64,000 nucleotides of DNA from Asterochloris sp. CNOR1 (lineage: Eukaryota > Chlorophyta > Trebouxiophyceae > Trebouxiales > Trebouxiaceae), in contig OZ017749.1 of assembly GCA_963969365.1 (NCBI GenBank), positions 2,542,001 through 2,606,000 of the forward strand, given 5' to 3'. The translations under genes and the position numbers were made by a program. The notes below the pieces were generated by a model. The model made no database searches and had not been told where the DNA came from. It saw nothing but the letters and a program-made list of their open reading frames with translations. Positions 3,306 through 43,400 of the stretch are shown here, in pieces. Numbering within the stretch: the first letter of the stretch is position 1; each line of letters starts with the position of its first letter.

Positions 3306-6300
3306 GGGGGCCAGAGTCTGGCAAAGTTGATGGTGGCACCTTGGCTGTTGGTCGCGACACCACCTTGGTGCCTGAGGGCAGCACATCTGGTCCTCCCTGG
3401 CCGTCATTGCCAGGTGCATTTGAGGGTAGCGCCTCCTGATGTGAAGTCGTTGCCTGCCCAGTGCTGCTGGCCTCAGAAAGACTGCTTTCTGACAGCCCAC
3501 CATCAGGCTGATGCTGAGCTGCCATGCTGGCGTCCTCGGACTGAGCGCCAGCCAGCACAGGCTGCTGTGCCTGTGTTGAGGCACCATTGGACGGCGCAGG
3601 CTTCCCCTCTGCCGCGCTGAAGCCTGGGGGCTGCTGCGCAGGGCTGCTGCCGCCGTTGGGAGTTGTCAGGCGTGGGCGGCGCACTGACCTGGGGTCTGAC
3701 AGGCTGCTCTCGGAAGAGTCGTGCTGGCGGAGCTCTCTGGGATCAGAGAGACTCCCATGCAGCCCTGCAGCAGGGATTACTGTGGTGTTTGCTGCCTCAG
3801 CAGACAAGGCTGTCTGTTGCGGACCGCTAGGTTCTCACACTGAGGATGGCGTATGGTGCCTTCCTGCCAAGGCCCGATTAGAAGAGCCGACCGCTCCCTC
3901 CAAAGCGCGCAAGGCAGCTTGCATGGCCACGCAGACTACACTTGCAGCCACACGCTGCATCCCTCAACCAAGCCAGCAGCCCAATCGTCACAAGCATCAA
4001 TGCAGGCCATGCTTGTGCCACCCACCCCTGCCATCAGCACCAGCCCCACCCGCACCTTCAGCGTCTGACAAGCTGTGACGCGCACGTGCATGCCGCATAT
4101 TGCTAAGCGTATTCACCCTGCACCGCCTGCGCACCTTCAGGATCCGACATGCTGTAGTGCGGCGGCGCACGCTGGGTTCCCCTCTCCCGCTTTACCCTCG
4201 CTAGGGCCTGCCTCCTCGTAAACTCCTCCACCTCAGCTGTGTTGGTGTCTCTGATGGCCACATTCCACTTGAGCTTCTGAGTGATGCCCTCTACAGCAGC
4301 ATGGCAGTCTCACAGCGCAGAAGGGTCCCCTACACATGTGTCCGTCCCATACGACCTCCGTGAGCTTCTGGCTGATGCCCTCTGCGGTGCAAATGCTCAT
4401 GGGTGGGCAAGAAACAGCGGTACCATACAGGCGTGGCGCATGCATCTTCCTGCACTTGCCTTACAATATATGCGTCGGCTCACATGCTGGCGGGTGCACT
4501 AGGCCATCAATCCAGTTGTGCTCCATTCAGCCCACACCTTCCCTGTGGTCTCAGAGTGCTGCCACCCTAGCTGGCACATGCACAGAGATACTGGCTGGCA
4601 GGTGCACTTGCTCACCATACCAGTCGCGGTCCAGGTAGCCCAGATTGATCATGGGCAGTGCGCACTGGCTGGTGGTGCAGCGGATGCTGCTGTCACGCAG
4701 CATGCGCATGGTGTGGCGCCCATCAAAGCTGGCCCTGCAGGCATGGCGCATGAGGCTTGCAGCTGTCCACAGCATAGCGCATCCACCACGGGTTGCAGTG
4801 CTGTGGACATGCAAAGGTGCACCGCGGGTAATCTGCTGACCCTGCAAGGCAGCCAGATACCATAGTTCTGAGTGCTGCTTGCGGGTTGAGCGCCACCATG
4901 GTGCATTCATGGAGAGCAGCTGGTGTTGGTGGGGCCTGAGCTCCCGCTGTGCATGAGTGGCAGGCTGGGCAGTGCTGCAGTTGGGTAGCAAGGCTCACCC
5001 TTCAAGCTGCTGAAGCAAGAGGTCCCTTGAGCTCAAGGCAGGTCAAGGTCCTCAGGGCAAGCAGATGCGGTGCGATCATGCTTTTTGGCCAGAGACGGGC
5101 GCTAGGCAGCCCATGGCCTGATCTCCATGTTGCAGATTGCAGCACTGCCGGTCTTGAAGCAGGGGGGCTGGTCTTGGAAGGAGAGGGGCAGCCAGCACAC
5201 CTGACATTTGAGCAGGAGAGTGTCGGCAGGTACTCAATCTCAGAGCTGACGGGCACCACCAGTGGCCCGCAGGACAGCAAGTGTGACATGCAGATGCAAT
5301 CTAGGGGCAGCCAAATACCACAATGGGCGTGGCAGGTCATTGCACCTGGCTTGCAAGCAGGAGTGTGGCAGCAGGTCAGTGTCAGCCTGTAAGCCGCCAG
5401 AAGTGCAGCAAGTGTCATATGCAAGGTCCTTTCAGGGACAGCTATGAGCGATCCCTTACAGGATGTCAATGATGGGGAGTTCAGCTCGAGCCCTCAGGCT
5501 GCAGGGCTGACTGCTTGCCTAATCTGCAAGCTGAGATTTGACATCATGGAAGAAGTCAGCCAACAGGCTGCCAGTGGCCTGCACCCCATGAACAGCTGCA
5601 AATGTTCAGCCTTGAGGCATGCATGACATGCAGGGGCATCCAAGGGCCACATCAGGCTTTGGCGCACCTTGCATGCGAGCGCGAGTGCGGCGGCAGGTAT
5701 ATCTCAATCTCTGAGCTCTCGGGCACCACCAGCGGCCGGAAGGACAGAGAGTGGGGGGCAATGGGGGTCAGCAGCGTCCCAGGCACTGAGGGGGCCACCA
5801 TCGGGCCCCCAGCTGACATGCTGTAGGCTGTTGAGCCTGAGGGTGTGGCAATAATGAGGCCATCTGCCTGCAGCGTGGGGACATCAGGTCAGCACACATT
5901 GGTAGGCATGGGAGCAGCTCTGCTCACAGGAGAGGCGAGTAAGCTGTGCGGCTGATGCTGGCAATGCCAATCTACCTGCAAAGTACGGGGACAAGAGGTG
6001 AGCCAGTTGTGATCAGCTGGCTGATTTGAGCGATGTGGTGCTCACAGGCATCCCCATTTTAGGGATGGCCGACAGTGTCACAGACACTCCTTTTGGAGAA
6101 GTGTACTGTGCAGCAGGCCGCTGTCATCATGTCCAGGCGCCAAGCATGCTTGGCACACCCTGGATTGACCGTGCACGATTTCAGAAGATCAGTCTGACAT
6201 CATGTGCACCAAGGCCCTACAGGCAGATGGTGGCCTGCTTCCAAGCACCTGCCACTCCCTGACAGATGGAACAGATCATGAGGGGGAGCACAGACAGCAG

Positions 6301-8250
6301 GTGGGGTGCTCCTCTTTGTGTTTAGATAGATGCCATGAGCAGCTGTGTTGCTTTTAAGCACTGTGTTCCAGCCTGTTGAGTTTGGTATAGATGCAAGAAC
6401 TTCACATCTGAAGAGAGACAGGGCTACATGGTACTCGCAGAGTGAGCTCGCCTGCACAGTGGTGATGTGGTGGCCATCGATGTAGGCTTCTAGGTTGACC
6501 ATGTTGGGGGAGGCCCCTCTGTCCACGAGGCACTCGTTCAGCACGTGGTGCACTCGCTGCAGCTGTCCCTCCCTGCAGGTGCACAGACACAGACATCAAT
6601 GCTTGGGCAGTGCAGGCGGCTTGTGGGGCACTCGTCGCAGCTGCACCTCCCTGCAGGCACTAGCAGTTGCGAGACGTAAATGGGTTGGGAGTGTAGCACA
6701 CCACGGGCTCAGCCAGGTCTCTTTGAGCAAGCTAGAGAGCCACCTGTGCCTTGCAGGGGCCCAAGCAGTGGCCTCACAGAGCGTAAGCGTGCTGAACACA
6801 GGCTCCTCCTCAAGTTCTTCACACCAGACGGCAGGCAGCCTCACATGGTCCACTTGGGAGGAGCTCGCAAGCCAGCAGACCTTTGGCAGCCAGCCAACGG
6901 AGCGCGGGACACGCAACAAGGCATACCAGAGCAGCCCTTTCAGTCACAACCCTCACCAGTACACTTCGCAGCGCTTGCGCGTGCGCAGTGTGCAGAACAC
7001 GGGGTCCTCGTTGGCACGCAGCACGCGCTGCAGGCAGGGCACAAACTCCCCCACGTCGAAGGGCGTCAGGAAGCCCAGGGTGCCCATGCTGAAGCTCATC
7101 ACGGGCGGCAAGGGGGTGTCCTCCACAAACAGGGAGGTCAGGTGCAGCACGGTGCCATCACCGCCCAGGCTGATGCAGAAGTCCACGGCTGCATGTGATT
7201 GCAAGGCAGGGTCAGTCTGTGGGTCTGGGCAACTGGATGCAGCGCGATGCAATAGTCCAAAGCTGCAGGCAGGTGGGAGGTCATGGCCACCTGTCACAGC
7301 CTCACCCTCAATGCTGGACACATGCCCAGGTCTGGCACAGGCGGCGTCTATGCTCAGCAGCATGGCAAGCTGAGCCAGGAAGAGGCCGCTTATGCAAAAG
7401 GCAGCACCGGAGCAGAGTGGCTGCCTCACCATCGTCTGCTGGGTCAAAGGGCTCAATCTCTGGAAACTCTGTACGCTGCACAGCACGTTCCACCAGGACT
7501 TGGACCCCCTGCTTCTGCAGCCTGCACAGGAGCCAACATCTTCTCAATCCCGCAAAGCTTGCTGACTGCTACCCCATCCTGCTGCTGTTGCCAGCCTGCT
7601 CTGCTGACATCGATCCAGGTTCAAGAATCCAGGACACCAGGGAGAGAATTGCGAGAGGAGGACTGTGCAACATGTGAAGGCAGTGCAAGGCAGGGGCTAA
7701 ATGCAGGCCTGCCATTGTTCTGACGTATCATCAGGCTCAACAGGCATGGCACACAGCGCACCATCTGGCGATCTCCTGCAGCTTGGCAGACGCCTTGGCG
7801 CTGCCAGGCTTCTTGACGATGAGCACCGTTTTGGGGCCGTCGTTCTCCCACATGATGTGCGCCCGCCGTTGCAGCTTGAGCGCAGCTTTGTCGGCCCACA
7901 TCTGCAGCATCGAGAGCAGCCCTGTCCAGGCACTGCAACAGGCACCTGCCTGCAGGAGTTCGATCAGGGTGGCCACAGGAACCAGGAAATGGTCTGGCAG
8001 CAGCCACTCTGAAGCAGCACAGGAATTCTCAGGCGTGACCGGGCCGGCTCTGGCTCTGGCAGGCCATGCACAATGCCTGAGGACACTGGCACGCATGTGT
8101 GGCAAGCACAGGCTGAAGTGCCAGGCACAATGCATGACTCAAGGGCTCGGGCCAGACCAAACATTGCAACAAACTCACCACTGCTGCGCCCCGCACCAGG
8201 CCTGCCTCCATTGCGCTGTCGTCGTACGCTTTCACTGCCTTTACCAGCTT
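3289..8250 (-). CDS. NAD kinase (ATP-dependent NAD+ phosphorylation to NADP+)
   Basis: Exons in transcript order: 8250-8179, 7901-7762, 7521-7430, 7188-6957, 6572-6452, 5867-5668, 4734-4616, 4290-4135 and 3809-3289, about 550 codons. The kinase core is unmistakable: [16 protein letters not shown] near the start, then the GGDGT motif in [68 protein letters not shown] and [10 protein letters not shown]. These match plant and algal NADKs that make NADP(H) for photosynthesis and biosynthesis. The first exon listed ([18 protein letters not shown]) joins in phase but has no visible ATG, so further 5' exons or a start at the ATG at 7901 are both possible. The intron after 6452 has a GC donor. The last exon adds about 170 Ser/Pro/Gln-rich residues beyond the usual end; its junction is the least certain. 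Compartment unknown. Confidence 0.85.
4052..4082 (-). repeat. Decayed copy of an NAD kinase exon 3' end with its donor
   Basis: On the minus strand this reads as a variant of the end of the exon finishing at 4135. Both carry ACAGC(A/T)TGTC, then GA(T/C)xCTGAAG directly followed by GTGCG. The copy lies in the downstream intron. Confidence 0.55.
5186..5290 (-). repeat. Partial copy of the NAD kinase [11 protein letters not shown] exon inside the next intron
   Basis: Minus-strand translation gives [14 protein letters not shown] and ends with AG followed by GTGTGC, the same splice phase as the true exon end at 5668. Only the 3' part of the exon is present and no good acceptor precedes it. It is either a decayed tandem duplication or a rarely used alternative exon. 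Confidence 0.7.
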
Positions 8251-13198: not shown

Positions 13199-15821
<2,623 letters not shown>

Positions 15822-21169: not shown

Positions 21170-21253
21170 ATTGCTGATCTAGTGTTCAAATTGGACAATG
21201 ACAGCATTCAATGGTGGGCATGAGTTTGTGAGGATGGCACTCGCCAAAAACAC

Positions 21254-24200
21254 TCACTCGATGTATATGCGGGCATGCACAGCTGAGGGCTGCCCCGTCT
21301 GCCCAAACAGCTTGGCAGACAGCACAAGGGGAACCTTGTCAAACATCTTCAGTGATAGAGGCAGGCTGACAGGCTTGAGATGGGAAGGGTTGGTCAGTGC
21401 CTGAGGAAATTCTAGGCCATCCAGACATGAAAACATCTGCCGAGTCTCACTGGTGCCACCACTCTGCTGCTGAGATGAAATGTCACCACCAGGCGATGGC
21501 GACACATCAGTGCCCACAGAGCTCTGAAGTGTTGGGGGTCTCGACAAACTAAGCACCCTGCAGCAGGGATCGAAATGCTGATTCTTCCACCGCACCTCCT
21601 GGTGGCAGCCTCCAGGCAACACAAAACATGAAGACTGGCCTGCCATTGCACCCATGTTTGACTGGAGCGGACAATAGCTCAATGAGTGGGTCTGATGGGA
21701 AGCCCAACACATATAGTCGACCAGCAGCACAGAGACATCAGGGTGCTGGGGAGAGTCAGACAACCCACAGCACGATGACTTGCCGGCACGCAGCCAGGTG
21801 CATGTCAATGCAGCACTTGCTTTGCAGCTTCACCCCGTTGCCCTGCACAGAGCCTTGCACAGCTCCCCTCCCTCATGGCATGGTCACACAAAGAAGGCTG
21901 TGCTCTCCCAGTCTTGGGACTGCACTCAGGTGCCAGGAGCATCGCTCTTGAGCACTCTGCATGGGCTCTTTCAGTTGCAACTGCGGTCCTGTGCAGGCAT
22001 GACCAACATGCAGCAGAGCTCAGTTTGTCTCAGGGTAATCCTACTTCCTGGCCGTGGCACTGATGCTATGAGTACCAGAGCTGAAGGCACCAGGGCTCAC
22101 TTAGTCGCAGGGCTCCACTCCCCGTGCACAGGCGCTGGCAGCATCTCTGCCACCTGGATCCGGACCTCGACTCCAAACTCCGGCACATACAGGTCCATGA
22201 AACGGGGCCCGCCCAGCTGCAGCATGACTGCCTCGCATACGCGGGGGTGCAGGCGCAGCATCACGCACAGGTACAGCTTGAGCGAGGCGTCCTGCACAGC
22301 AGGGGCGGCGCAGTCCTGTTGGTGTGGGTTGCAGGCAGGCATCACGCAGAGGGACAGTTTTGGGGAGGCGTGCTGTGCAGCAAGGGCAGCGCGTGACTGG
22401 CTGAGGCGACCCGCGTCAGCAGGTGTGAGCCCCATTGCAGTGAGGCACATGACTGGGCTGCCAATGGCAGATGACGCTTTGAACAGGCCTGACTCATGGG
22501 AATACCTGTGCCCCGCTAAGCCCAGGCCATTCCAGGTAGACAGGGGTTTGCAGCCACATGCCCACAGAGGCAGTCTAGAAGGCCAAGCCAGGCCGATCTG
22601 CAGCAGATGCATCCTCGCCCCTTCATGTACACAGCAGCAGAGCACTGATGGAAACGAGGAAAGGCTGACAAGAACATGACGAGCTCCATGCAAGCACACC
22701 TGCGCGTTCTTGGCTGCAAACTTGCGGTCATTGGCGTGCTCGCTTATGGCCGACACCATCTCCTGATGCATGAGGTGGTGCTGCTGTGCGACACCAGCGT
22801 CCTCCGCAGACTCCTCCTGCGGCTGCGCTCCTGCGCGAACTGTCTCCTTCATAGAGTCACCCTCAGCGAGAACTGCCTCCGCACCTGCAGGCATCGCATG
22901 TGAGAGGCAGACGTGTTGATGAGTTGCAGGCGTGGCATGTGGCACCCGGCATGCTGCTGATGCTGGACAGCACACAGCCAGGAAGACTCTGCACACAGCT
23001 CTTCTGACAGGTGGCCTTGCGCCCTGCCAGCTGAGCTGCTGACCCGTGCGCAAGCCATCGGTCAAGCATGGTGAAAAGTTGTGTCGCAGGACATGCAGCC
23101 ATCGAGCTGCCTCACTGTCTGGTGTCTTCAAGCATGGCTCGGCCGGTGGTTTGCCCTTTGTTCCAGCAGCTCCCTTGGCAATGGCGGCTGCCAGCAAGCG
23201 GTGCACCACCACGTCAGGATATCTGCATGTGCGTCCAGGCAAGTCAAGCAAAGTTGCACGGGAAAGCTGCCATAAGTCCAAGCCTGCTGCCTGAAAGCTA
23301 GCAAGCACAAGCGCTGTGCGATCCCAGCTCGGCAGATGCCGCGAAGAGGTGCAGCACACAAGGGTATGCAGGCTCCGTAGGGAGGCCTCTGCTTGCCGAG
23401 GCAGCGACATTGCTGAGGCCTGCAGTCTTCAGCTGTTCGATGAGTGCTGTCGTCCAGCACTGTCAGTGCATAAAGTGCAATGTCTGGCCGCACGTCTAGT
23501 TGTTTTTACAGGCTGCTCCATGCACACAGAGGCCTGCAGCCATTCCATGGCTGCAATGAGGCACCAAAGCACCTGCAACCTGATGTACCTGCGGATGGGG
23601 GACGTGAAGTGGGTATAGAATCGAACGGCCAGCGCATAGTGGCCCCACTGGGAGCGGTCCTCTATGTCGCCCGTGCAGAAGTAAAGAGCACGCTGCAGGC
23701 AGCAGGATGAACGTTGAGGCTGGATCACACAGCGATGGGCAGGCAGCAAGGGCTAGCTCAAGGCTATGCAGCAAGCAGCAGTCGGCTCCCTTCCATGTAG
23801 TATGCAGATGTGCAAGCACAAGGCTTGTCACTTGTTCACAGGGCAGACAGGGTGTCATCCTGATCAGCACCAGCCAGCGCCCACGCTGCTGCCCATGTTG
23901 ACAACAAGTGGCGCCCTGCGTGAACCAGATGCAGTGCAGCATGCAGGGTGCACCTTCATGGGCTTTGTGACCATCTGGGTGACCACGTCGATGACGTCCG
24001 CATCTGCCCCGCTGCCACGGAAGGCCTGCAGGCTCTGTGCCAGGGAGGCCGAGCTGCTGGTGTCCATCTCAATGCCCTGCGGGGAAGGAGCAGGGCGCAC
24101 TGTCAGACAGAGTGATGCCACTGCCAGGGAGGCTGAGGTGCTTGTGTCCAGCTCGATGCCCTGCACAGGGCGGGCAGGGATCTTCAGATCTCACAGGGTT

Positions 24201-27200
24201 GCCTTGTGGTACCACAAGCAGTGGGGCCGCAGGCTGTGGAGCTCGAGCAAAGGCAGCTTGGGCTACCTCAATGCTCTGCAGGGCAAAAGCGCGTCAGCCT
24301 TGCCACTGAGTTGCTGCGGCGGCCATTGGCAATTGTGTGCCCTGCTTGTAGAGGCATGCAATTGGGCAGCTCATGGCTTGTCCAGGCGCAGCGTGCAGCA
24401 TGGCTCCCGTCTTCTAACACTCTGAGTCAGGTCAAACCCAAATCGCTGCACAGTCCCAGGGCACAGCTGACATGAACAAGCTGCAAGGAAGCTCAGCCAC
24501 TGCATTATTCTATGCTGCCAGGTTGCATGCGCATTCATTTGGTGCAAACAGCCGCACTTCATGCAGTCTCCAGTACGCTGCACAACAGGAAGGCATAGGC
24601 ACCCCCTGCCCTCAGCTGATAGTGCCAAGTTCTGGGCGCTCACCAGCCTATGCAGCACAGCAGGCCCACCAGCGTGTCAGGAGTTGGGCAAACCAGGAGA
24701 TGCATGATCTGCTCTGCGCGTACGCAGCTTGCAGGGTGAGGCTGGCAGACGTGAGCTCGCTGTACAGCTCCCTCGGCTGGCTGCTCAACAGCATGCCAAC
24801 AAGGCTCCAACAAGGCGCATACCAGTGCCTGGCACGTGCCTGGCAGGTTTACTGACATGCAACACAGCAGGCCTACCAGCACATCGGCAAATCTGGTGAG
24901 GTCATCCATCTTGCGCAGGTTGGGCTCGGGGTGGCGCCGCAGCAAGGCACGCAGAGGGAAAGCTGTGGCCACCACTCTTGCCACGCTCATGTTGGCCAGC
25001 AGCATGAATTCCTCCACCAACTGATTGGCTGTGCGCTGCACTGCACAGCAACAGGCTCAGGCTTGCAGCACAAATGCGTCCCAAGCAGCATGAAGGCTTC
25101 TAAGCAGCACAATGGCCTCCTCATCGGGGCGATGGGGGCTCCCCTGCAGAGGACACCATGTGGCAGCTTCTCACCCTCTACACTGCCTGCACCCACCAAG
25201 GGGCCAGGCAGCCAGTTGGCTACTGCCTGCACGCACAGCATCAGGTCTCCACTCTGCCTGGGCTCACCATGGGAAGACGCAGCCAGGGGGTTGCCTTCTT
25301 CGTCCATCTGGAAGCTGAGCTTCACGTTGTCCAGCTTGAGGCAGCCGCGCTCAAAACGCTGGGCGCGCAGCCTACTTGCGATGCCATGCAGGCTCAGCAC
25401 GTCCCTCACCACCTGGAGTGTAGCCACCTTACATATGGGTACCCAGGGCCAGCAAGCAGCGGCACTGCCTGCCTTGCGCGTGAGAAGGATAGCCAGGCAG
25501 CTGATGCTGTCCTCTTGCTGTTTCTCGATCGAGAGTGAGAGCAGCTGTCTGAGGCACTCGCACCAGCTTCAGGGGCACACATGCAGATGCTCTGATGGGT
25601 CTGCTGCATAACGCAAGGGTGCTGCTCAAACATTCAGCAGATACACTGCTTCAATGATGCAGGAAGCCCCTCCACCTCGCGCTGACAGAGGCCAGCTGCT
25701 GAACCTGACCGATGCAGTCCAGGGTGCCCCTGCATCCTGACCCGTAACTGTGCACTGACCTCGGGCCACTGCCTGTCAGGGGAAGGCACACCTCGTGCCA
25801 GTGGCTGTCTCATGCAGATCATGCTGCTCTGGGGAATGCATTTCAGCTCAGCTCAACTGGTGCTGACCTCCGGCCACTGGCTGTCATGCAAATGCACGGG
25901 CGGCGGCTCCTGGCCCTCCTCGGCGCTGAAGTGGCCATCGATCATCAGCTGCGCATGCTCGTATGCCAGCTTGGCACAGGTGCGGATGATGGAGCGCCCC
26001 GTCCACTGGTCCATAATGTGCCCATCAGGGGTCAGCTCCCACACAATGGAGAATGCAAAACGCTCCACGCCTGCACAGGAGGGAGGCGTGCTGTGGGCTG
26101 TGGGCTGCCAGAGCGGCTGCAACGACCCCTCTGCTGAGCACCACACCTAAAGAGCAAAGCCACATCCGGAGCCAGGCTTTACCATATCCAGGATGTGATA
26201 GGCTCCTGCATCTGACAATGACTGCAACCACTTTCTACAGTGTTGGATGCAGTCATTGTCAGATGCATGCAGCACCCCCCTTCCATACCAAGTGCCTGTC
26301 AGCAGCAGGCTGCTGCAGATATGCCAGCACCCTAGTGTTACACCACTTTACCCACCAGGCTTTCGACTGCACAGGCGCTCACACAAAAGGGCGAGCGGCA
26401 TATGCATGACCCTTTACACCAGGTAGGTGCTGGTGCTGCTTACTGGAGCAGCCAGTAGGCCACAAGCCCTGACCCACCTGGGTTCAGACTGCACAGGCGC
26501 TCGCACAGCAGGTGGGGCAGCATGGGGATGACGCGCTGCACCAGATAGGTGCTGGTGCTGCGCTGCTGAGCTTCTTTGTCCAGAGGGGTCTCTGGCCTGC
26601 AGGCAGCAACAGGGACAGAAGTTCTACGGAGAGGCTACATGACCACAGTATGCTGTGTGACCCAGCTTCCTGCCTAAAACATATAAGGCAGGCAACAGTG
26701 CTACAGGCCCCCTCACAGGATTGGCACCAGCACTGCAATAGCAGTTGCAAGGCAAGTCAGAGTGTGTGCTAACTACAGGGCTTGCACCACTGCCCACCTG
26801 ACAAAGTGCGCCACGTCAGCAATGTGCACACCGACCCTGTAGTTGCCGTTGGGTAGGGGCTCAATAGACAGGGCATCATCCAGATCCTTGGCTGTCGAGG
26901 GGTCAATGCTGAAGATCCTGCACCGCAGCACATACAAGCTCAATAAGCTGGACCACATTGCAGCTTGGGCAGTGCAGGCGCCGCTGCCTCAGAGCCGCTC
27001 ACCACTCCACAATATGTCTGTTTGTAAACAGAGTAGCAGGCTGTCAGCTTCTGTCCTGAGCTGTCTGAAAACTGTGCACACATGCTGGGGCCTAAGCCCA
27101 ATGGCAGCTGACATGGCCTGCACTGACTTGCTGTCTGGCATATGACAAGCAGGCAGGAACTTCCCTACCTGGTACATGACTGCCAGAGCTGTCAGACAAC

Positions 27201-30200
27201 GAGGTACTTGGAAACACTCCCCGGTCAAAATGACCATAGGCCGGAGCCTTCCCTTTCAACTAGGGAGTGTTGTGGAGCACATGGCATGTGGTCAAGCAAG
27301 CGCACAGGTCAACCTCTCCACTTCAGGAGAACTGTATGAGCCCCTTGCTGGACTGGGGGTTGTGACCTGGACCTCACCTTAGGCCAGTGAAGTCCTGCCT
27401 TTCTGCTCTATCCTGAGGCGTGATGGTCCACTCCTCAGCTGGCAGGCAATTGAGTACCTCCTCGCTGAAAGGTTCGTCAATGACGCCCTCAGCATGCAGC
27501 ACGCCCTGAGTCTCAGCCTCAATCTCCCCTGCAGAAAGAAACAGACTGTTGAGCACACATACTTAATGGCAGCAGAGGCCCCTGCCTCGTCTTCTGTCTC
27601 CTCTGCAGGGTGAAGGATTGTTGTGCCCAATGAAGACCCTGGTCACAGCCTCAATCTTTGCAGGACTCTGTGGATCCGTTCTGAAAGCAGCCATGGCAGT
27701 CAGCAGAAGCATAGGTGGCTGATCTGCAGGCCTTCATGTCGGCCATGGTGTCTCCTTCATGCCTTGCCTGCAGGCCCTAGCTGCACAGGCTCCTGGACGC
27801 ACCGCTGACGGCAACAGGTGCGAGCTTGATGGGAGCTGCAGTCAGGAGGGCAGCTCACCTGCCTGCCCAATGCTCTCACGCACTTCAGCGATGGGGTGTG
27901 AGTTCGCTTCGCCCCACCCCTTCATGACAGCAGACACCAGTGTTCTGCAGACCACATCAGGGTTGCTGGCTTCTTCCTGCAGACAACATTGCACCTTTCA
28001 GCAGTCCTGAGATGATTCTGTTCTGCGATGTACAGGGTACATGCGGCACCTGTCAAAGAAATTTGCCCTTTGTGCCGTGCTTCTCCAAGAGTGCCACTAA
28101 CAGCACCTCGTCTGTGCCCAGCAGCGGGCAGGCATCAGCCGCGTTTGACAGCACCACGTCCCCTGGGTTAAAGTATATAAGGGAGATCCATCACGAAAAG
28201 AGCCACAGCCACCACCTTGAGATACTTGCATGTAATTCAGGGCAGCAGATTTAGAACCAGCCAGCACCCCACCTTGAGAGGTTCCCGTATTTCATGGGGC
28301 AGGTTGCCGGGGCGCACCATCATGGGGGGCAGCCGCGGGTCCGCTGGGGTCAGCTCTAACAGGCCGGACCCCAGGTCAGGGCTCTCCCTCAAAATGCCCA
28401 CCACAGTGTTGCGCCGCCGCGACACTGGCTCGCAGTGCACCACCTCGGCGCAGGGCCTCAGCTCTGGGCACTCTGCCACCCTGCAGGCCACAAGCCCAAA
28501 ATCTCAGCTGCAGCTTGTGCCAAAAGCGTGTCTTCATGCAGAGAAGAAGTGCTGAGCGCATAACATGCGTGATCAGAAACAACTGTGCCACGTTAATACA
28601 GCGGTTGGCAGGAACCAGCTTAGCAAAGCTGCCTGCTGTGTTGGCGCAGATCATGCTGCAGGGCAATGTGACTGCAGGGCTCACAGCTCGACAAGAGTTG
28701 CCAAAGCCTCCTCTGGAGATGCAGCGCCCTCCCAGGGCACACTGGCGCTCTTGTCCTGGACTCTGCCCCTATAAGACAGGCAATATGAAGATGGAGAGGG
28801 TCAGGAAAGTATAATCGCTCCCTATACATGTTGGCAGCGCTCTTGGAGCCAGCCGAGAATGCTCACATTGAAAGCATGTGAGTTTCAAGGTTTTGACACC
28901 TGGCCTGCAGAAGGCTGCAGCTCATCACCGAGACACTTGGCTCAGTAGCATGAAAGCCACACAGCAACGCCAGGGGCCTCTGATTTTTCCATGCAGATGA
29001 GCTCAACACTGGTTCAGCTTGGCCCCATTGCGCTGCCCACGCTGAGCCCTCAACTTCAATTCCCAGTGGCAATGGCCAGCAGAGGGCAGCTCACTGCCAT
29101 ATGTGCACTGCCCCTGCTGCTGGCGCGTACACATCAGCCTGAACGCCACACAGAGAAGTCCAGCTAGGCAGCCCAGCAGCCCACCGCTGATTCAGCCTGG
29201 CACCATTGCGCTGCCCCTGCTGCCAGCGCTGGTGGCTGCCAGGGCTCCCTCTGGAGGCGGCGCCATGTGCTGCTCCACCTGCAGAGCCCCTGCTGGCCCT
29301 CGTTGGGGTGGCTGCCGCTGGCGGTAAGCTGGTGGCGACATCTGACCCCGCAATGGCAGCTGTGGACAGGTGCGAGCCTGAGCCCACACTGGACAGCGCA
29401 GCTGATGTCTGTGCCTTCTGCAGCTGCAGCGTTTTCAGCAGCTCAGCTGTCATGCTGAGACCCTCAGAGGTCTCCGATGCTCCTTCAGGTCCCCCTGCAT
29501 CCTGGTGCTCCAGGCCGCTCTGCACGCTGCCTGACGCGCTCAGGAGGCTGCTGGGCACTGATGCCAGCTCAGCAGCCATGCTGTCTGCAGTCGGAACATG
29601 AATTATTTTGAGCAAGTATGGGTTTTAGCGGGTGTGGTCAGGCTGGTGGCAGCGGACATGAGTCTCCTGAGTCCTGATGCCAGCTCAGCAGTTGTGCTGC
29701 CTGCAATGCCAAAGGACAGACAGTTGCAGGTGACGGAATGCTCATGAGGCTGCCGCGCCATGATGCCAGCTCAGCAATTCCTGCAATTACACAACCCAAC
29801 AAGAAGCGCCTCAGCTTGTCACCTGACAAGCACTGTGGTTTTGGTGGATGCACCGGCCAAAAGGCCTGCAACAATGGCACAACTCCAAAGTCAAACAGCC
29901 TGACTTTGATGTCAAGCCTGAGAGGCTTGGGAATCATACAAGCTGTGTGTCCTTGCTGCAGAAAGGCCCCACAGCGAGGCAACTGCTGCAGTGCACACCT
30001 TCAGCAGCTGCAAAGGAGCTGTCTTTGTTCAGCGTCACACAATCTCTACCTCACAGCAACAGAGCCTGAACCAGGGCAAGCGCTGCAGTGCTCACCTCCA
30101 GTGGCAGCCAGCGAGACATCATCAGGTCCAGTCACTGCCGAGGCCGCTCCTGACGCCAGGGATTGGCTGTCATCACCCTCAGCTGGGCCTGGTGCAGTCT

Positions 30201-33200
30201 GCTCAAGGCCAGACATCTGACCCGTCAGCTCATCGCCTGAACTGCCCTGCGGGGCTGCCAGAGTGGTGCACAGCCCTGACTCGCTCACCAGTTCAGGTGC
30301 ACCTGCATCATTTGGCACGTCTTGTCAATGGTCAAAGCAGTCAGCCCAGTGGCTGCAGGCATGCTGCTTACACATCAGGCTAGGCACCCTCACATGGCAA
30401 TGGCCAAACAGGACACTCGCTGCAGAGCATGCAGGAGCATGAGGGTCACAGCTGGGCAACAGAAGGGTTGAGCAAAGGGGGGTCACATGTGGACGGTCCT
30501 ATGCTGCACCTGACGAAGCAGCGTTCCAACCTGCCTCGCCACCGCTGTCTGCCCTGTCCATCAAAGTTGACAGCCCTGCAGACAGGAAAGACGCTGTCTG
30601 CTTAAGGCCAGATCTTGGCTCAGGATGAGGGCAGCATTCGTGAGATGCCTTGGGAGCAGGAAAGCACGCTTGAAATCGGCAACAGCTAGGACACCAAGCT
30701 CAAGACGAGCTCTGCCAGGAAACACTGAGCTGATACAGGGCATGGCTGAATATGAGGAGCAGCAATCGTGTGAGAGAAGCAGTGTAGTAACGGTGAGGGT
30801 CCTCGAGGACGGAAATCAGCTCAAAATCAAGCAGGGCGCCAAGCTCATGGCAATAAGCTGGCTGACGACCCCATGGGCTGATATTGAGCTGGACTCGAGG
30901 ACAAGGAGAGGCTGTGATATGCTGGGCTGGGCTTGAAACTAAGCTGCTGCGAAGCAGTGGCAGGTGATAAGCCGTCCACTTCTGTGTTGTGCACCCTCAT
31001 GATTGTGACACTACACGTGGCCCACCTGCAGCGATTCCAATCTCTTCAGAGCCATCATCGCCAGCAGGAGTCTTCCCCTTGTCGGCTGCGGTGTCTGCAT
31101 CACAGTAAAAACTGATGCACAAGCAGCTGGGACAAGGATTGAAAGGCACGGCACTCTGAGCTTGATGGTTGGCTCCCCACAAATCACATGTCTGTCTGTC
31201 TGGGCCCACACGGTGCTTGTTGTCTGTGCTAGTCTGACCTGCTCGGAGAGAGAGTGCGGCACAGCTACACTTCAGCATTTCTGTCAGCAGCACTCACACT
31301 TCACTTCAGGGACCATGCAGCACGGCCCAGCGGTAGCAGCCTTTCCCCCAGCAGCAATCATCAGAGCATTCCAAGCACCTGAGACCTTGCCCACCTGCGA
31401 CAGCTGCCCTCCTCTGTGTGGCCTTCTTCATGTCCCGCTTGAAGGTGAACCAGGAGGTTTGTGGCAGGATCCGTATGATGACCACATCGCCGTCCAAAGC
31501 CCTGTTCTGAGCAATAACGCCCTGCAGCAGCAACAGCATGGTGTCCTCGGGGTGAGATCACAGCCCTGTTCTGTGTCATGGCGGCCTGCAGCCTAGAGAT
31601 GCAAGTTGCAAGCTCTGCACCTCAGAAGGGGCTGGCCCTGTTCTGCGCCATGCTGCCCGGCAGCGCAAACAGGACAGCCCTGCACGCTGAGCGCTTGTTG
31701 CCCGGCCAGCCAGTACTTTGTTGCACAGTATGTTTCTGAACTGACAGCTTGCACCAGCAGCCAAGTCAACCTGAGGACTGACAGATTACTGACTGGGACT
31801 CGGCGAAAGCACCAGGTAAGCACATCGGGTCATTTCAAGACACCACCAGCAGCTTGCTGTCCTGCCTACCAGTATTTTTCTGGCTGGCACTGCTCAAAAA
31901 GGCTGCTCACAAGTGTCGCACCTGAATCAGCACATCTGCTGGCAGGCCCTCCACGGAGACGAAGCCCTGCTTTCTGTCCCCCGGGTTGACCCTGAGCTCC
32001 CCTTTGAACAGCAGCCCTGACTTCATGCCCTTCATTAACCTCTCTTGTGACCAGTAGTTGGGGTAACGGATCCGCCAGGGCTTCGTGCTGGACACTGCAT
32101 GGACATAAAGGCTAGTGAGCACGGCCAGCAGCAGAGCAGTGGGCTAGCCTGCACAGATTAAGTGACAGCCTGGACTGGTGAACAAAAGTTGCGTTTCAGA
32201 AGGCAACACTGCTGCAGCCACACTTTCATTGGAAGGCTCTGCAAGGATTGAAGATGCACCTCCACAAGGATGCACCTCCACGCAGCATGAGGAGGGGGGG
32301 TGGAGCCTTCCAGCTCATCAGGAGATCTGAGGATCTGCAAGGGGCACTGTCTAAGTCAGTTGAGGGCTCTTTGTGGAATGTTGAGCAATACACAGCCATT
32401 GCAGCAGGGCAGGGTTACACCTGCAGGAGAAGTGCCGGGGCTGCCCCTGGCGGCAGCATCCCGCTGTGCTGCCTTCCAGTCGACGTCAATGCCTGGACTC
32501 CCCCGATCCTTCCGGTGGCGGTTGCTGGCCAGCCTGTTGTACGGTATTGGCACGATATTGTTGCGCTGCTGAGGCTGGGACTGGGACCCTGGTGGTGTGC
32601 TGGCCAGCCCCTGCTGAGCCAAAGGAACTGGTTCAGAGGGACAGTGGAGGGCCTGTTCAGCATGCTATGCTGGGCAGCAAGCAGCTCTTCGGGGCTTTGA
32701 CAACCAAGAAGATTGGAACACTCTGCAGCCTGTGTGCGCTTGAAAACTAGCATTGCATGAGGGCAAGCGTGGAGCTGCATTGCCAGTCTGGTGGTTGCTA
32801 GGGCCCGAGCACATGGAGATGCTCTGCAGGCTGCTGGTGCAAACATGAGCCTCCACAGGGGGGCAAAGCTTGGCATTGCATGGGAGCCAGCCTGGGGTTG
32901 CACGGCCAACCCTGGGGCTGGCAGGGCCTGAGCAAAGTAAGATGCTCAGTAGCTTACTGATGCAAGCATGGGGCTCTTCCAAAACCAAGAGAAGCAGCAA
33001 GAGCTGCACGACTCACTTGAGGGTTACCATTTGCAGCGAGCTGCTGCGCCTGCGCCCGCCAGAACTCTGGCATGCTGGTCGCACCGGCACTGCCAGTCAC
33101 CGGCACAGTCACCACCTGGCGCTGCTTGCCCCTGTTGCTGCCGCCAGCCTGGGCCCCGCCGGGAGGGACCTGCCACGGGGGTGATCGAGAGGCAGGCCCC

Positions 33201-34143: not shown

Positions 34144-37100
34144 ATGAGTCCTGAGTTTCACCAGAACAGCAACGGCTTTGAGATTCAAGAGGAGGTGAGC
34201 TCCCTTCTACCTGAGAGCCCTTCTGAAGGCCAGCACGAGCTTCTAAAGTAGTTCTGTGTGCTGCAGGTCTCCAAGAGCAAGGTTGTCAAGTCCGTGCTTC
34301 TACATCTGGTACCTCCATGCTTTGTAGCGGCCTTATTCTGCTACTGTGACAGAGCCAATCTGGCATTTGCTTCAACCCAGATCCAACAGGACCTGCACCT
34401 CTCTACTGCACAATATGGGGCAGGCGCTGGCATCCTTTTCCTGGGATATTCAGTGTGAGTGGTGGCAACATCAGATCAGCATTGCCACTGCAGACTGCCG
34501 GTCTGGTCCTGGAGCAGGCCTCTAAGTCCTCGAACACTGCAGGCTGGCCTGCTTGACGTGTCTGCACTGTGTGCTGCAGCATGCAGGTTCCCAGCAATGT
34601 CATCCTGTCAAGGGTGGGTGCCAAGCGCTGGCTGTCCTTCGTCATCATTGCCTGGGGCTGCATTGCAGTGGCCTCAGCAGCCCTGCAAACTCCCGCCCAG
34701 TTCATGGCGCTGAGGGTACTGCTGGGCGCTGCAGAGGCGGGCACCTTCCCAGGTATTTTGTGCAGCAAGGGGCTGCTGCAGATCAATGCACACCATTGCG
34801 CCTGGTGGCCAGCTCACGCTCACCAAGCACCAGGCAATAGCGCTTCACACGTGCAGCTTGTTGGTACCTTCTGCGCTAGGTAAGATTTTTGGCTGCAGGC
34901 TGGCCCAGCCAGCCTAAAGGGATGTGCAGCCTAGATGCAGGCTGGTCTGTGCGCAGCTGCCGATCTGCTGCAAAGCATGGCCCCTGCCAAGACCCCTGCA
35001 CTGCTCCTGCAGGCATCCACTACCACCTCGGCCTCTTCCTGCAGCCCCATGAGCAGGGGTATGCCTATGCCCTGATCTGCACCAGCACCGCGCTGTCTCA
35101 GGTGGTGGGAGGGCCCATGGCTGCTCTCATAATGCTGCTGGATGGTGTGGGCATCCGGGGCTGGCGCTGGCTGCTGCTGCTGGAGGGGCTGCCCTCGCTG
35201 GCAGTGGGACTATACATCCTGGTGAGCATTTGTGAACAGGGAGAAAGTTCTATGTTGCTGCTGCGGGAGCGGCCGCCCCTTGCTGTACTTACAGGTCAGC
35301 CTGTACGGGGACTTGGTAAATGTTATGTTTGCGGATATTCAAGGCTTATACTGCTGCTGGAGTGCCTGCCCTCACTGGCAATCGGGATGCACCTCCTTGT
35401 GAGCCTCTGTGGCGCGTGAGGGAGCCTGTATGTGTTTGCATCTGCGGCTGGTGCTGCCTGCTGCTGCTGGAGAGCTGCCCTTGCTGGCCATGGGATTGTA
35501 AATTAAGGTGAGCCTGCATGGACAGGCAGGGGAACTTTCCGACTGCAGCTTTGCTAACAAAAAGGTCCTGGGAATGGCTGTCATGAGTTTTAAGAAATTC
35601 TGCATCTGCTGTGCACGAAATTTAGCATCATGTCCCGGAATGGCTCATGTCGCAGGCACAATGCGTGGCTTCACACGCTGCTTCATGGCCCACAAAAAGC
35701 TGGGGAAGCCAGCCTGCCTGTACGATGCCCTGAATGACACCTCTTGTTACAGCTCCTGCATTGATGTGAATGCCTCTGTTCCTGCTAGCTGTGAACCATT
35801 CTTTTGTCTAGGCTTCCTGCAGGTAGTCAGGGAGTCTCTGTTGCGTTGACCATGTTCACCATGCTTTGCTGCCTCATTTGCATCTCATTTGCATGCCTGC
35901 CTGCAGTGGTTTCTGGCGCCAAACCCAGCAGGCGCCAAGTACCTGACCCCAGCAGAGCGCGAGTTCCTTCAACAGCGCCAGACCAAGCTCACTGAGGCAG
36001 CACCCTTGGCAGAGCCTCTGCTGCAGCCCATATGGGGTGAGCACTTTCCTGATGTGCCTGACCTGCACCAAGGCATGTGTGGATGCGGTGTCTGTTGCTG
36101 CAAGCTGCAGTGGCTTGCTGCAGCGGGTTGGGTGCAGCCCCTGTGCCAAACCCCATTGCTGCTGTGGTGCTGCTTCTCATGTGTTGCTGTCCATGATGCA
36201 GACTGCATGCGGGACTGGAGGGTCTGGCTACTGGGCCTGGTGTGGGTCCTCACTGAGACCTCAATCTATGGAATTCTATTTTACTGTCCACTACTCATCC
36301 AGTCTTTGCTCAGCAAGAACGAAGCTGACACAACAGAGTCTTGGCTGTGGCGCCACGAAGGTCTGTCGCTGCGCTCTTTGCGTTGCTCCCTGTACATGCC
36401 GTGCCTGATGGCTGCCACTGCCACTGCCATCCCTGCAGAGTCTGGATCTGCTGAAGAAGCCAGCAGGCTAGCACTGCTCTCAGCGGTGGTGTTTGCGCCA
36501 GCTGCTGTGGGAATGGCTGCTGTGGGGAAGCTATCCCAGCGGGCAAATGAGCAGCGCTGGCATGGCTTCACTGTGCTTGTCTTGGGCGGGGTATCACTGA
36601 TGTGGGTCCTGCAGCGCTGTCCACTGCCTCATGTCAGCACTGTCCTGCCCCATGGTCGTGACCATTGCTGCCGACCCTGCTGGCTGCTGTTGCAGGTTAA
36701 TGTTGCCCGCAATCACTTGTCTTGGCTCTGTGGCAGGTTTCTTGTTGCTTATATGTGCAGCTACATTCATCTGGTCAATTCATGGTGAGACTCCTCTGAT
36801 TGCCACGTAGCGTGATCTGTCACACACCTGAAAAAGGTGCTAGAGCAGGCCCGTTGTATGCAGGCCCCTTTTACTCCCTCCCTAGTCAATTTCTTTCTGG
36901 ATCCAGAGCTGCAGTCGGTGTTGCCTTCATCAACACTGTGGGCGCAGTTGGTGGATTTGTCGGGCCGCTCTTGCTCGGCTTGAGCACACAGCAATGGACA
37001 ACCTTGGTTATCTTTGGTATCTTTGATATCCTTGCAGCCTTGCTGCTTCTTGGTAAGGCATGCTGTCAGTGAGGAACCAGTTTTGCTCTTGTCCTGGCCC

Positions 37101-39294: not shown

Positions 39295-40220
39295 ATGCCC
39301 CTGCTGCAGGCCGACACACTGCAGCTCGAGGCTGAAAGGCTACAGGTGCAGTCGCTGCTGGGTGCAGGGGGACTGGGCACATGTTGCACGGCAAGACTGC
39401 TGTTACCAGGAATGCGTCCAGCTCAAATGCTGTTCAAATGCTGCAGGAACTGCAACAGGATAAGGAGGAGCTGCTGCTCCGAGTGCAGAACCTGAAGAAG
39501 GTTTGTGGGTCGGACGCATGGCAAACCGCAACTATGAGCTACCTGTCACACAGCTCTTACACAGCAGCCAGCAGCCTGAATCAGACCAAGTACTGCCATG
39601 TGCAGCTCCAGCTCTGCAGCCCTTCCCTTCCGGCCATCTACAGTGGCAAAGTGCAGCCGCTGCCAGCCAATCAAGCTGATGATTCCTCTGCAGACTCGTG
39701 AACAGCCAGCCAGCTTCTGGATCCCCTGCAGCAAGACTGCAGTGCTTGCACCTGTTGCAGTGTCCCACTGCTGGCCACGACTGCAGGAGCTGTCTGAATG
39801 GCGCCAGCGCCTGAACACCCAGGTCAAGACCTACCAGAGCGAGATGGGAGAGCTCAGGGACTCTCTGACTAGTGAGGTCAATGACCTGCGCAGCGACTTT
39901 GAGACACTGCGCAGCAGTCTGCGCCAGCAGATTGACGCCACCACCACACTGGCGCAGGGAGAGATCCGGCGCGATGCAAACAGTGCTGACCAGGTGCGCC
40001 CGCCGGGAGACCAAGCTGTAGTGTGGTGGCGGCCATCTCATGAGCAGAGCAGCATGCCTTTGTCCATCAAAGCCTGAAGCCACCTTCCCAACATGCATGT
40101 GGTTTGCTGGTGTCATGGAGTAGCAGAATGATTCGCTTCCAGCACGGTAGAGCTGCTGTCCTGTTGCAGGTCGGACCCATAGCAGTGAGCTCCCCCATTA
40201 AACAGTCAGCGCGGCAATGA
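39295..40220 (+). CDS. Small coiled-coil protein, DUF1640/CCDC90-like core
   Basis: Four exons, 39295-39345, 39447-39500, 39787-39993 and 40170-40220, all joined in phase 0, encode about 120 residues. Almost the whole protein is predicted coiled coil by heptad pattern: LQADTLQLEAERLQ, LQQDKEELLLRVQNLKK, and then EVNDLRSDFETLRSSLRQQI followed by GEIRRDANSADQ. The third exon resembles the DUF1640 region of MCUR1/CCDC90B mitochondrial inner-membrane proteins. However, the C-terminal transmembrane helix of that family is absent; the model ends SSPIKQSARQ. A missed last exon or a soluble relative are both possible. No mitochondrial presequence is obvious. Confidence 0.55.
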
Positions 40221-40479
40221 GAGTGGCAACTAGTTCCCCACCAGGCCTTGGCTGGCTGTTGCTGCATGTCAGAAGATTTAATTTGGGCCCCAAACCTTAG
40301 CTGGCCATTGCTGCTTGGCAAGAGAGCTGCATGCTGAATACAGAAACCACAATGTCGAAAATGTGCCATATGTCACAGCCAAAGCGCTGTGGCACATGAG
40401 TCTGTCAGCAGGCCGCATGCCCATGCTCACAGCCCGATCAATCTTACTTGCAACGCACTGATAGACCCCGACAACTGGC
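40221..40479. other. Intergenic, nothing recognised
   Basis: 259 bp between two plus-strand genes. It should contain the promoter of the polymerase eta gene; no ORF or motif stands out. Confidence 0.4.
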
Positions 40480-43400
40480 ATGCTGCCAGCCAGGCAGAGG
40501 CAACCAGCAAACCAATGTCAGAGGGTCATCCTCCACATCGACCTGGACGTGAGCTCATGCTACAGTGACCACCTGCATGCTGTGCTGGCATTGTTTTCAT
40601 GGGTTTCATTTCGTGCTTACAGGCCTTCTACTGTGAGTGGAGGACTGTTCGCAAAGCTGTTTTGCACATTGGATGAGTGGGCGACTCAAAAGCTTGGCTG
40701 CCAAATCGCTGCTGCACCATGCAGGCCAGGTAGAGATGAAGCGGTGTGGCATTCCAGCGCATCTGCCTTGCGCTGTGCAGCAGTGGGAGGGCCTCATTGC
40801 AGTGAACTACCCTGCAAGGACAGCCGGCGTCACACGCCACATGCGTGCACCTGAGGCCAGAGTGAAGTGCCCAGAGCTGCAGTGCGTGCACGTGGAGACC
40901 ATTGGTAAGGCGCAGTGCCTGCCCCAACTATGCTTGCTGGCAGTGGTCCTGCGCTGGACCAGTGACAGTGCACAGCGTCACAGATACTGCTGGATGCTGA
41001 TGTGAGCCTAGTCTGACTGGCGCAATGTAGGCGGGGAGACCTTCAAGAGCGGTGACAAGGAGGGCGAGTGGGAGCCCAGTAAGGAGGACAGGAAGCATCA
41101 GAAGGCCTGCCTGGAGAGATACAGGTGCAGCTTTGCTGTCTGCACGAGGTGCACCCCCAGTGCTGCAGCTTGCCCAGCCAGAGGCTGGCCTGGTTGTGCA
41201 GTCCCCTGCCGGATGAAGCATGGCTGCTGATATGCACTCAGGTACACTCAGGTTGCCTGGCAGGTATAGTTTGCTCTGTCAATTGCTGCGGTATGCCCCC
41301 TGTACTTCCCTCCACGCAGGCAGGCGTCACTGGAAATCATTGGCGTGCTCCACAAGGCAGTCCCCAGCGCTGTGATTGAGAAGGCCTCCATTGACGAGGT
41401 CTACATCGATGTCACCAATCTAGTAGATGATGAGCTGCAGGCAAGCCAAGCCACAATCTGCCGTGCAGCAGCTCTTTGATGGTGCTGCACTTGCATATCA
41501 AGTCTATCTCACCTGGAAAGTGACAAGTTTGGTGCTCTGGACCTTGTAGCCAAGGGCATGCTGCAGCCTGGGCTGCCATTGCAGGTCTTGATGCAAGGTG
41601 AGCCATCTGTCGGTCTGCCTTCAAGCTTTACACATCTGTTATTAGATGCTGCATTCACCCACAGAGTTCCGGGCAGGTCTGTGATTAGGTCAGCGCCCTT
41701 CACCATGTGCTCTAGTCTGAAGTCCGGCCAGATGACTGACGCAGGTCTTCAGTTGAGGGGCAACGCTGCCTTCAGATGCTTGGCGGCTGCCTGCAGGGCA
41801 GGAGGCGCACCGCTGGCAGTGCGGGCGGCCCTGAACCCCCCCTCAGCCCTGGGCTGGACAATTTTGCCTGGGGCAGCGTGGTGCCAGAGGGGCCCCTGCA
41901 GCTGGACAGCGAGTTCGAGCGCCGCCTGGCCACAGGGGCTTGCATCGCCTGCCGTCTGCGCGGCGCTGTGCGGCAAGAGCTGGGTGAGCGTGCAATACTT
42001 TGGGTTGTTGGATGAGGGTGCATGAATGTGGGCACGCTGAGGCTCAGCCTGGCTCAGGGGTCCAGCAGGCTGCAGCGCAGTTTTGCAAGCTGCGTGGGCA
42101 CACCGTGGCATGTCTGAGCTGGACCCTGCCTGCCATGTGTTTGTTTGTGGCTGCCTTCACCCAGCGTGACCAGGAATACCCTTCTTCAATCAAGATATTG
42201 TCCAGTGCTCACGGACCACCATCTGCTGCAGGGTTCACCTGCTCTGCCGGCATCGCCCACAACAAGCTGCTGGCCAAGCTGGGATCGGCCATGCACAAGC
42301 CCAACCAGCAGACGGTTGTGTGCTGGAGGTGAGGCCAGATGCAGCCTTGCCACCCACTGAGCTTGAGTGACACAGCTCACTGCCATCGGGACTCACCTGC
42401 TGCCTGCACTTGACCTGCGGCACCTGGCCTGCACCATGCTGCATGACGGTGCCAACCACTGCTTCACTGTCCTGCGGCTGATGCAAAGACTGTCCTGGAG
42501 TGTCAGTGCAGACCTTTTGTTGGGCTGACAGCCTAAGAGCAGCTGTGCACTTTGAGGACTTTTGGGGGTGAGCAGGCTTGTAAGCGTCCATCTGCGCCTG
42601 TAGAGCCGTGCCAGGGCTGATGCAGAGCCTGCCCCTGAAGAAGCTGCGCAACTTTGGGGGCAAGCTGGGAGCTGAGCTGGAGAAGCTGGGCTGCAGCACA
42701 GCTGGGGAGGTAGCGGGGATGCCAGCTGCCACCCTGGCCAAGCACTTTGGGCAGGAGCGGGCCAGCAGCATTTTGTACGCAGTGCAGGGCTACAGCGACG
42801 AGCTTGTGCAGGTGATGCTGTCCTGCTGGTGTTGGGCGCAGGCCTTCCCTTGTGGCTTATTGCTCGGCGTGGAGGGGATGAAGCTGCCAGCATGTGCAGA
42901 TGGTGTTCTGTGTTGTGATGCTGTTGTGGGACGTACGCCCAGACTTATGGCTCGCTGCTCTATCCTGTGGAGCTGGCGGTCATGCCTGCTGCCGCTCAGA
43001 TCAAGACCTTGTGGTAGAGACAGGCCCGCTGCATTGCGTCGCAGAGCTGCAGCAATGAGCTCTTTTTTGGATATGAAGCTGTGCTGTGATGCTGCGGTAT
43101 GGCACAGGCCTGCAGGGTGTCAGCTGCTATGCCTGCTGCCACTTTGGCCAAGCATCCTGGGCCACCAGCATTCTGTACAGCATGCGGGGCCGCAGCAGCC
43201 AGGCTGTGCTATATGCGCCAGGCTAAACGGACGAGAGAGATGCGTTCCATTCCCTTTCACGAACGGCTTTGGTATTGAGGTTCCTGTCTGCCTGAAGGCA
43301 CCAACTCCCTTTTGTGGGGCATCTCCCCTGCCGCTGCCTACACATGCTGAAAGCTGGTTCATACAGGAGGGCGTATGACATTTAGCTTGAAAGTGCAGCT

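What the first reader, a model, noticed from the sequence alone, without database searches (positions are those of the whole stretch)
4052..43212. Recurrent decayed tandem copies of exon ends, splice junction included, in neighbouring introns
By eye I find the same structure at least ten times: a 30-100 bp block covering the last or first part of an exon plus its donor or acceptor is repeated, diverged, in the adjacent intron. Cases: NAD kinase (4052-4082, 5186-5290), DIS3L2 (22333, 24123, 24645, 25755, 26345, 29671-29790, 29972, 31560-31665), MFS exon 4 (35345-35520, two copies) and POLH (43120-43212). It looks like a lineage-specific process that duplicates DNA across exon-intron borders, a possible engine of intron growth and of new splice sites. 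I know of no standard name for this pattern.
Basis: seen in the sequence. Interest (0 to 1): 0.75.

Follow-up and report, generated by a model that had tools for sequence, protein, structure and literature searches.

The report
Old tandem duplications fossilised in introns
Introns of this alga-like genome carry many worn-out copies of the neighbouring exon ends, splice sites included, left by old short tandem DNA duplications; the process is of a known kind but looks frequent here, and it lengthens introns and plants spare splice sites.

Summary
In 354 kb (window plus 290 kb from elsewhere in the genome; gene models from a self-trained HMM), 94 junction-type matches lie 45-300 bp away, against 0.5-3.1 per equal band beyond 600 bp; 74 of 1090 predicted junctions are hit. 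Copies are direct, local (mode 60-150 bp) and, in the two cases searched, found at one place in the genome. They decay: mismatches are nearly even over codon positions, and splice sites are lost about as fast as neighbouring bases.

Intron-only duplications occur too. A simulation of uniform tandem duplication plus decay, with the exon copy conserved, reproduces the excess at borders without border-targeting (best factor 0.5-1.5; 2 not firmly excluded). A constant rate is strongly rejected: nearly all copies are old. Intron birth by tandem duplication was tested and not seen. Best reading: ordinary small tandem duplications of an earlier active period, kept where splicing still used the outer site.

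The parts
4130..4172 (-). NADK exon 4135-4290, 3' end with donor (source copy)
   Evidence: score 19, P=0.008; gene model; NAD_kinase domains by Pfam
4051..4093 (-). decayed copy of the above in the downstream intron
5662..5753 (-). NADK exon 5668-5867, 3' end with donor
   Evidence: (77%, 92 columns)
5195..5283 (-). copy 467 bp downstream in the intron; frame open by eye, donor-like GTGTGC kept
22244..22305 (-). DIS3L2 exon 22097-22291, 5' end with acceptor
   Evidence: score 32.5
22326..22386 (-). copy about 81 bp upstream in the intron
24038..24080 (-). DIS3L2 probable real acceptor and exon start (CGCAG|GGCATTGAGATGG)
24122..24164 (-). copy 84 bp upstream, in frame, with intact GTGCAG|GGCATCGAGCTGG acceptor; the gene finder took it as the exon start
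25855..25897 (-). DIS3L2 exon 25868-26070, 3' end with donor
   Evidence: score 24.5
25746..25789 (-). copy in the downstream intron, spacing 108
26472..26561 (-). DIS3L2 exon 26478-26596, 3' end with donor GTGGGT
   Evidence: score 52
26350..26439 (-). copy in the downstream intron, spacing 122, donor kept
29523..29589 (-). DIS3L2 exon 29185-29584, 5' end with acceptor
29639..29705 (-). first copy upstream in the intron, spacing 116
29731..29776 (-). second copy upstream in the intron, spacing 202
30075..30115 (-). DIS3L2 exon 30096-30302, 3' end with donor
   Evidence: score 21
29978..30018 (-). copy in the downstream intron, spacing 97
31495..31528 (-). DIS3L2 exon 31395-31521, 5' end with acceptor
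31559..31592 (-). first upstream copy
   Evidence: score 20
31635..31668 (-). second upstream copy, 72 bp from the first
35138..35243 (+). MFS exon 35013-35221, 3' end with donor GTGAGC
   Evidence: MFS_1
35351..35411 (+). first copy downstream in the intron, spacing 177
35426..35529 (+). second copy, spacing 288, GGTGAGCC kept
42670..42845 (+). POLH exon 42604-42811, 3' part with donor
   Evidence: POLH-Rev1_HhH and IMS_C
42965..43111 (+). copy in the downstream intron, spacing 263
43077..43209 (+). copy in the downstream intron, spacing 407
32750..32976 (-). example of an intron-only tandem duplication (123 bp unit, 71%) with no match to its exon ends

Best explanation
Short tandem duplications (mostly 60-150 bp) fell over this genome during an earlier active period. 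One inside an exon usually wrecks the protein and is lost. One inside an intron is neutral and both copies decay. One that spans a donor or acceptor survives if splicing keeps using the outer site (the upstream donor or downstream acceptor): the protein is unchanged, the intron grows by one unit, and the inner copy decays while the exon copy is held by selection. That makes border-spanning duplications the easiest old ones to see. Repeats of the event give ladders of exon-end copies about 100 bp apart. Shown: local direct copies, decay without coding constraint, no need for border-targeting, old age structure. Inferred: which splice site is used, and the molecular cause (fill-in and end joining at staggered breaks is the most likely, from the literature).
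For: Spacing: 205 direct segments of score 16 or more at 45-300 bp; background 0.019 per diagonal outside exon-exon pairs. Direct, not inverted: 12 inverted segments at 45-300 bp, one of them exon-intron (pairs in a coding repeat of L024 left out there, not in the direct count). Identity is highest at the junction and falls off faster on the intron side (95 cases). Locality: 0 of 72 and 0 of 71 at far intron ends. Two cases searched have no other reported match in the 56 Mb genome. Mismatch by codon position 0.251/0.218/0.290 and 16 of 63 copies with an in-frame stop: the copy is unconstrained, and the third-position excess fits change in the exon over time. GT kept in 13 of 35, AG in 13 of 26, like neighbouring bases. 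Simulation: best border factor 0.5-1.5 over four settings and three ways of counting; constant rate lnL -97 to -169 against about -31 to -38 for the best free-rate fits. Tandem copies that abut: L002 678-803/801-926; L014 array across a donor.
Against: Copies abut within 20 bp in only 33 of 176 non-overlapping pairs (median gap 50 bp; 12 more overlap); the rest must be explained by decay of the ends. Intergenic stretches hold fewer duplications than introns: 5 observed against 29 by random placement, where intron-only has 55 against 59; P=0.013 after setting aside the 21 of 52 intron pairs related to exon ends; 7 of 1073 tiles against 95 of 1951. Counting events with either copy more than 30% intergenic gives 13. 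Uniform duplication does not explain a deficit. Free-rate fits pile up at the edge of detection, so the size of the old phase is poorly fixed. Gene models are self-trained, without RNA, and checked by Pfam for five of 13 window genes only.
Confidence: 0.72

Rival explanations
1. A border-targeted process duplicates DNA at exon-intron junctions, for example through splice-site motifs acting as microhomology or through RNA intermediates.
For: 113 exon-intron events against 64 by random placement, intron-only 55 against 59; 21 of 52 intron-only pairs are themselves related to exon ends; intergenic deficit. With those family pairs removed a factor of 2 is only 0.2-5.7 log units worse than the best.
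Against: Best factor 0.5-1 with all pairs, 0.75-1.5 with family pairs removed; a factor of 3 is worse by 2.3-11.6. Intron start, end and middle all show about 4% hits, above chance. Both donors and acceptors are hit (57 and 38, P=0.064).
Confidence: 0.17
2. The copies are functional alternative exons or alternative splice sites kept by selection.
For: DIS3L2 24122-24164 copy is in frame with an intact acceptor; NADK 5195-5283 copy has an open frame and a donor; spacing of exon-intron events leans to multiples of three (48, 35, 30; not significant by my estimate); some copies score like real sites. In the set found with the splice site included, GT (0.82, 0.72) and AG (0.87, 0.82) are slightly better kept than most neighbours, but detection biases that set.
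Against: Mismatch nearly even over codon positions, stops in 16 of 63; in the set found without the splice site, GT and AG are kept no better than neighbouring bases.
Confidence: 0.08
3. Introns here arose by tandem duplication of exon sequence with AG|GT (intron birth).
For: Duplications of the right size exist.
Against: Exon end against intron end and exon start against intron start: 1 hit each of 376 introns under 400 bp at score 13 or more, none with both ends at score 9 or more.
Confidence: 0.02
4. Dispersed mobile elements or introners carry the repeated blocks.
For: None found beyond the repetition itself.
Against: Matches between different 10 kb pieces are rare (0.046 per pair at score 26 or more); two cases have no other reported match in the genome.
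Confidence: 0.01

Closest known systems
Small tandem duplications from break repair (Schimmel 2021, PMC8355091, passages seen; Vaughn and Bennetzen 2014, seen only in its reference list)
   Same: Direct, local, short copies; [quoted passage not shown]
   Different: Here they are old, diverged and seen mainly because one copy is an exon end; many units exceed 100 bp.
Repair-mediated duplications in vertebrates (Pace 2009, PMC2671141, passages seen)
   Same: Short local copies (acceptor mean 162 bp) that include exons and intron splice sites, with intensity falling over primate evolution.
   Different: That set left out copies within 50 bp of their template and includes an exon copied in opposite orientation; here copies are near and almost only direct.
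Intron gain by tandem genomic duplication (PMC4974935, start of abstract; PMC2891723, passages; Gao and Lynch 2009, seen only as a reference in PMC3296678)
   Same: Tandem duplication of exon sequence with splice-site motifs.
   Different: Here existing introns grow; the signature of intron birth was tested and absent.
Tandem exon duplication and mutually exclusive exons (PMC9013439, PMC6071210, starts of abstracts in listings)
   Same: Exon sequence copied beside itself in a gene.
   Different: Here part of an exon with one junction is copied and then decays.

Membership tests
Small tandem duplications | Direct orientation | tested here: met
   205 direct against 12 inverted segments at 45-300 bp
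Small tandem duplications | Copies close together | tested here: met
   Mode of spacing 60-150 bp; junction-type matches 94 at 45-300, 8.5 per equal band at 300-600, 0.5-3.1 beyond
Small tandem duplications | Copies abut exactly | tested here: inconclusive
   Gap 20 bp or less in 33 of 176, 12 further overlapping; L002 and L014 cases abut
Small tandem duplications | Empty site in a relative | not testable with these tools
   No relative is held for this genome
Intron gain by tandem duplication | Intron end matches the upstream exon end and intron start the downstream exon start | tested here: not met
   1 and 1 of 376 at score 13 or more, none at both
Repair-mediated (captured) duplication | Either orientation, not tandem | tested here: not met
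   1 inverted exon-intron segment against 101 direct exon-intron events
Tandem exon duplication | Copy under coding constraint | tested here: not met
   Mismatch 0.251/0.218/0.290 by codon position, 16 of 63 with stops
Tandem exon duplication | Copy spliced into RNA | not testable with these tools
   No RNA data
Introners | Related sequence in many genes | tested here: not met
   Between-piece matches 0.046 per pair of 10 kb pieces at score 26 or more; two cases searched genome-wide, no other match

The most novel reading that the evidence does not exclude
A large part of the intron DNA of this lineage, by the model roughly a sixth to a half, was made by a past phase of tandem duplication that has since nearly stopped, and the same phase sowed decoy donors and acceptors at a sizeable share of all splice junctions; a change in DNA repair or population size switched it on and off, and introns record it because exon ends act as fixed reference copies.
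Probability: 0.3. Interest if true: 0.7.

Novelty: new variant of a known kind. Interest (0 to 1): 0.5.

Why it matters
Intron-internal duplications erase themselves, because both copies decay. Copies that span a splice junction keep one conserved partner, so they let such events be counted and dated long after intron-only ones are unreadable. If the age structure holds in relatives, intron growth in this genome came in a phase rather than steadily. The many junctions with a second, decaying splice site nearby are natural cases for asking how the spliceosome keeps to the right one. It is also a warning for annotators: in DIS3L2 my gene finder took the copied acceptor as the exon start.

Tried and rejected
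A sharp peak of spacing at 120-160 bp in blastn self-hits did not survive: a diagonal scan without blastn showed a broad mode of 60-150 bp. My reading, from memory of how blastn treats hits near a stronger diagonal, is that it drops them.

Strong intron-specificity (tiles, about tenfold above chance) shrank at the level of events once pairs related to exon ends were set aside (P=0.013); left unresolved.

Intron birth by tandem duplication: no signal. Error-prone copying at birth: the exon-to-copy changes are not biased to one base (transitions 504, transversions 458), and the third-position excess points to age. Constant duplication rate: rejected in all settings tried, with border factors of 1, 3 and 6. 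One search was meant to remove family pairs but a slip in the script left them in; one search is the mended run, and it raised the best border factor from 0.5-1 to 0.75-1.5.

Searches for earlier reports listed no paper that, by title and start of abstract, describes decayed copies of splice junctions in introns of an alga; only four papers were opened, as passages, so this is weak evidence of absence.
Full report
Setting. The window lies at C4:2542001-2606000 of a 56.4 Mb, 21-contig assembly with no held relatives. GC is near 58%. I infer a green alga from gene content and splice consensus, from general knowledge; the taxon was not determined. Besides the window I could fetch 290 kb, 354 kb in all. 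A self-trained gene finder settled on donor CAG|GTGAGC and acceptor CTGCAG|G and, after a penalty on introns, 628 exons (median 144 bp) and 545 introns (median 285 bp). Pfam finds NAD kinase, triosephosphate isomerase, RNB/Dis3, MFS and DNA polymerase eta domains in the five window proteins I submitted, of 13 predicted.

Is it there? Yes. I made 16 alignments: 15 for the 12 listed places and one for a further POLH copy. Fifteen of the 16 have P of 0.008 or less against 1000 draws of 1 kb from other introns; the one at 24645 does not (P 0.084). Some are striking: 92 columns at 77% in NADK, 90 at 79% in DIS3L2, two copies of about 60 and 105 bp in the MFS gene.

Is it more than chance? Direct segments of score 16 or more number 205 at spacing 45-300, of which 94 are of junction type; equal bands hold 8.5 at 300-600 bp and 0.5-3.1 beyond 600 bp. 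With a 40-bp query, 42 of 433 exon ends find a copy in the next 55-255 bp of intron (1.3 expected from other introns) and 32 of 444 exon starts (0.9 expected); the far ends of introns of 560 bp or more give 0 of 72 and 0 of 71. A looser gene model gives 35 of 436 and 27 of 454. Loci outside the window show it more strongly than the window.

What is copied? Identity along the diagonal is highest at the junction (about 0.65-0.87 per position), falls slowly into the exon and quickly past the first few intron bases (95 cases, 57 donors and 38 acceptors). Several junctions have two or more copies at steps near 100 bp, and 21 of 52 intron-only pairs are related to an exon end of their intron. L014 845-1340 is a young example: by eye five units of about 100 bp across a donor, three of which keep ATG|GTGAGC.

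Do copies work? Mismatches per codon position are 0.251, 0.218 and 0.290, and 16 of 63 copies have a stop in the exon's frame. In copies found without using the splice site, GT is kept in 13 of 35 and AG in 13 of 26, no different from the bases beside them. By my count in those tables, 7 of 35 donor copies reach the fifth percentile of real donors and 8 of 26 acceptor copies score as high as the weakest real acceptor listed. In DIS3L2 the copy at 24122-24164 is in frame and has its own good acceptor, and the gene finder included it. So most copies decay and some remain possible decoys or alternative sites.

Is the border special? Random placement of the same 185 events predicts 64 exon-intron, 59 intron-only, 32 exon-only and 29 intergenic; observed are 113, 55, 12 and 5. 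The exon-intron excess is what unequal decay should give: an intron-only pair diverges from both sides, an exon-intron pair mostly from one. I simulated tandem duplications in the real gene stretches, let them decay, and detected them in the same way. With all pairs (101 exon-intron, 60 intron-only) and rates free over age, the best border factor on the grid is 0.5-1 in four settings, and a factor of 2 is worse by 3.6 to 16 log units. Removing the 22 intron-only pairs related to exon ends moves the best factor to 0.75-1.5, with or without counting each of the 80 junctions once; a factor of 2 is then worse by 0.2-5.7 and a factor of 3 by 2.3-11.6. Border-targeting is therefore not needed, though a mild form is not excluded. 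The intergenic deficit is not explained by this model (P=0.013 after removing family pairs).

When? In the base setting a constant rate predicts about 21 exon-intron and 25 intron-only events of score 55 or more; 2 and 2 are seen. Constant rate has lnL -146 to -169 with all pairs, and -97 to -164 with family pairs removed and border factors of 1, 3 or 6, against about -31 to -38 for the best free-rate fits. The number of surviving duplicates cannot rise with age under a steady birth rate, so fixation of duplications was higher in the past. At border factor 1 the fits place the bulk at 0.24-0.45 substitutions per intron site. Total duplications implied in 272 kb range from about 300 to 1150 by setting and factor; they sit at the edge of detection, include those assumed lost to selection, and are soft. 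Bases directly visible as duplicates are 10,836 of 182,155 intron bases (6%).

How? Copies are direct (12 inverted segments at 45-300 bp, after leaving out pairs in a coding repeat of L024; the best of the 12 come mostly from L012), local, and in two cases searched without another match in the genome. This fits tandem duplication by fill-in and joining of staggered breaks (PMC8355091, passages) better than capture of nearby DNA, which can insert in the opposite orientation (PMC2671141, passages), and speaks against intron birth by duplication as the source. The molecular step is inferred.

Verdict. A true and rather widespread feature, of a known mutational kind, with an unusual age structure and a useful property: exon ends make old tandem duplications readable.

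Noticed in passing
window 14399-14812 (intron of the triosephosphate isomerase gene): The whole intron folds into one long hairpin with perfect arms of 45 bp (14507-14551 and 14669-14713); RNA folding z-score -10. It could be a small-RNA precursor. The genome search reported only the place itself, on both strands.
   Followed up: partly
L012 2088-2251 and 3225-3716: Long inverted repeats (up to 422 bp, 65-85% alike), the larger in predicted exon and intergenic DNA.
   Followed up: no
L024 8620-9359: Predicted coding stretch that is both a direct and an inverted repeat of itself; may be a misread repeat.
   Followed up: no
window 62-2262: Predicted proline-rich protein with internal repeats in several exons.
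   Followed up: no
L014 845-1340: Array of about five units of 100 bp across a donor site, pairs 83-90% alike: successive donor positions, three still GTGAGC.
   Followed up: partly
all 354 kb: Predicted intergenic DNA holds fewer tandem duplications than introns; cause unknown.
   Followed up: partly
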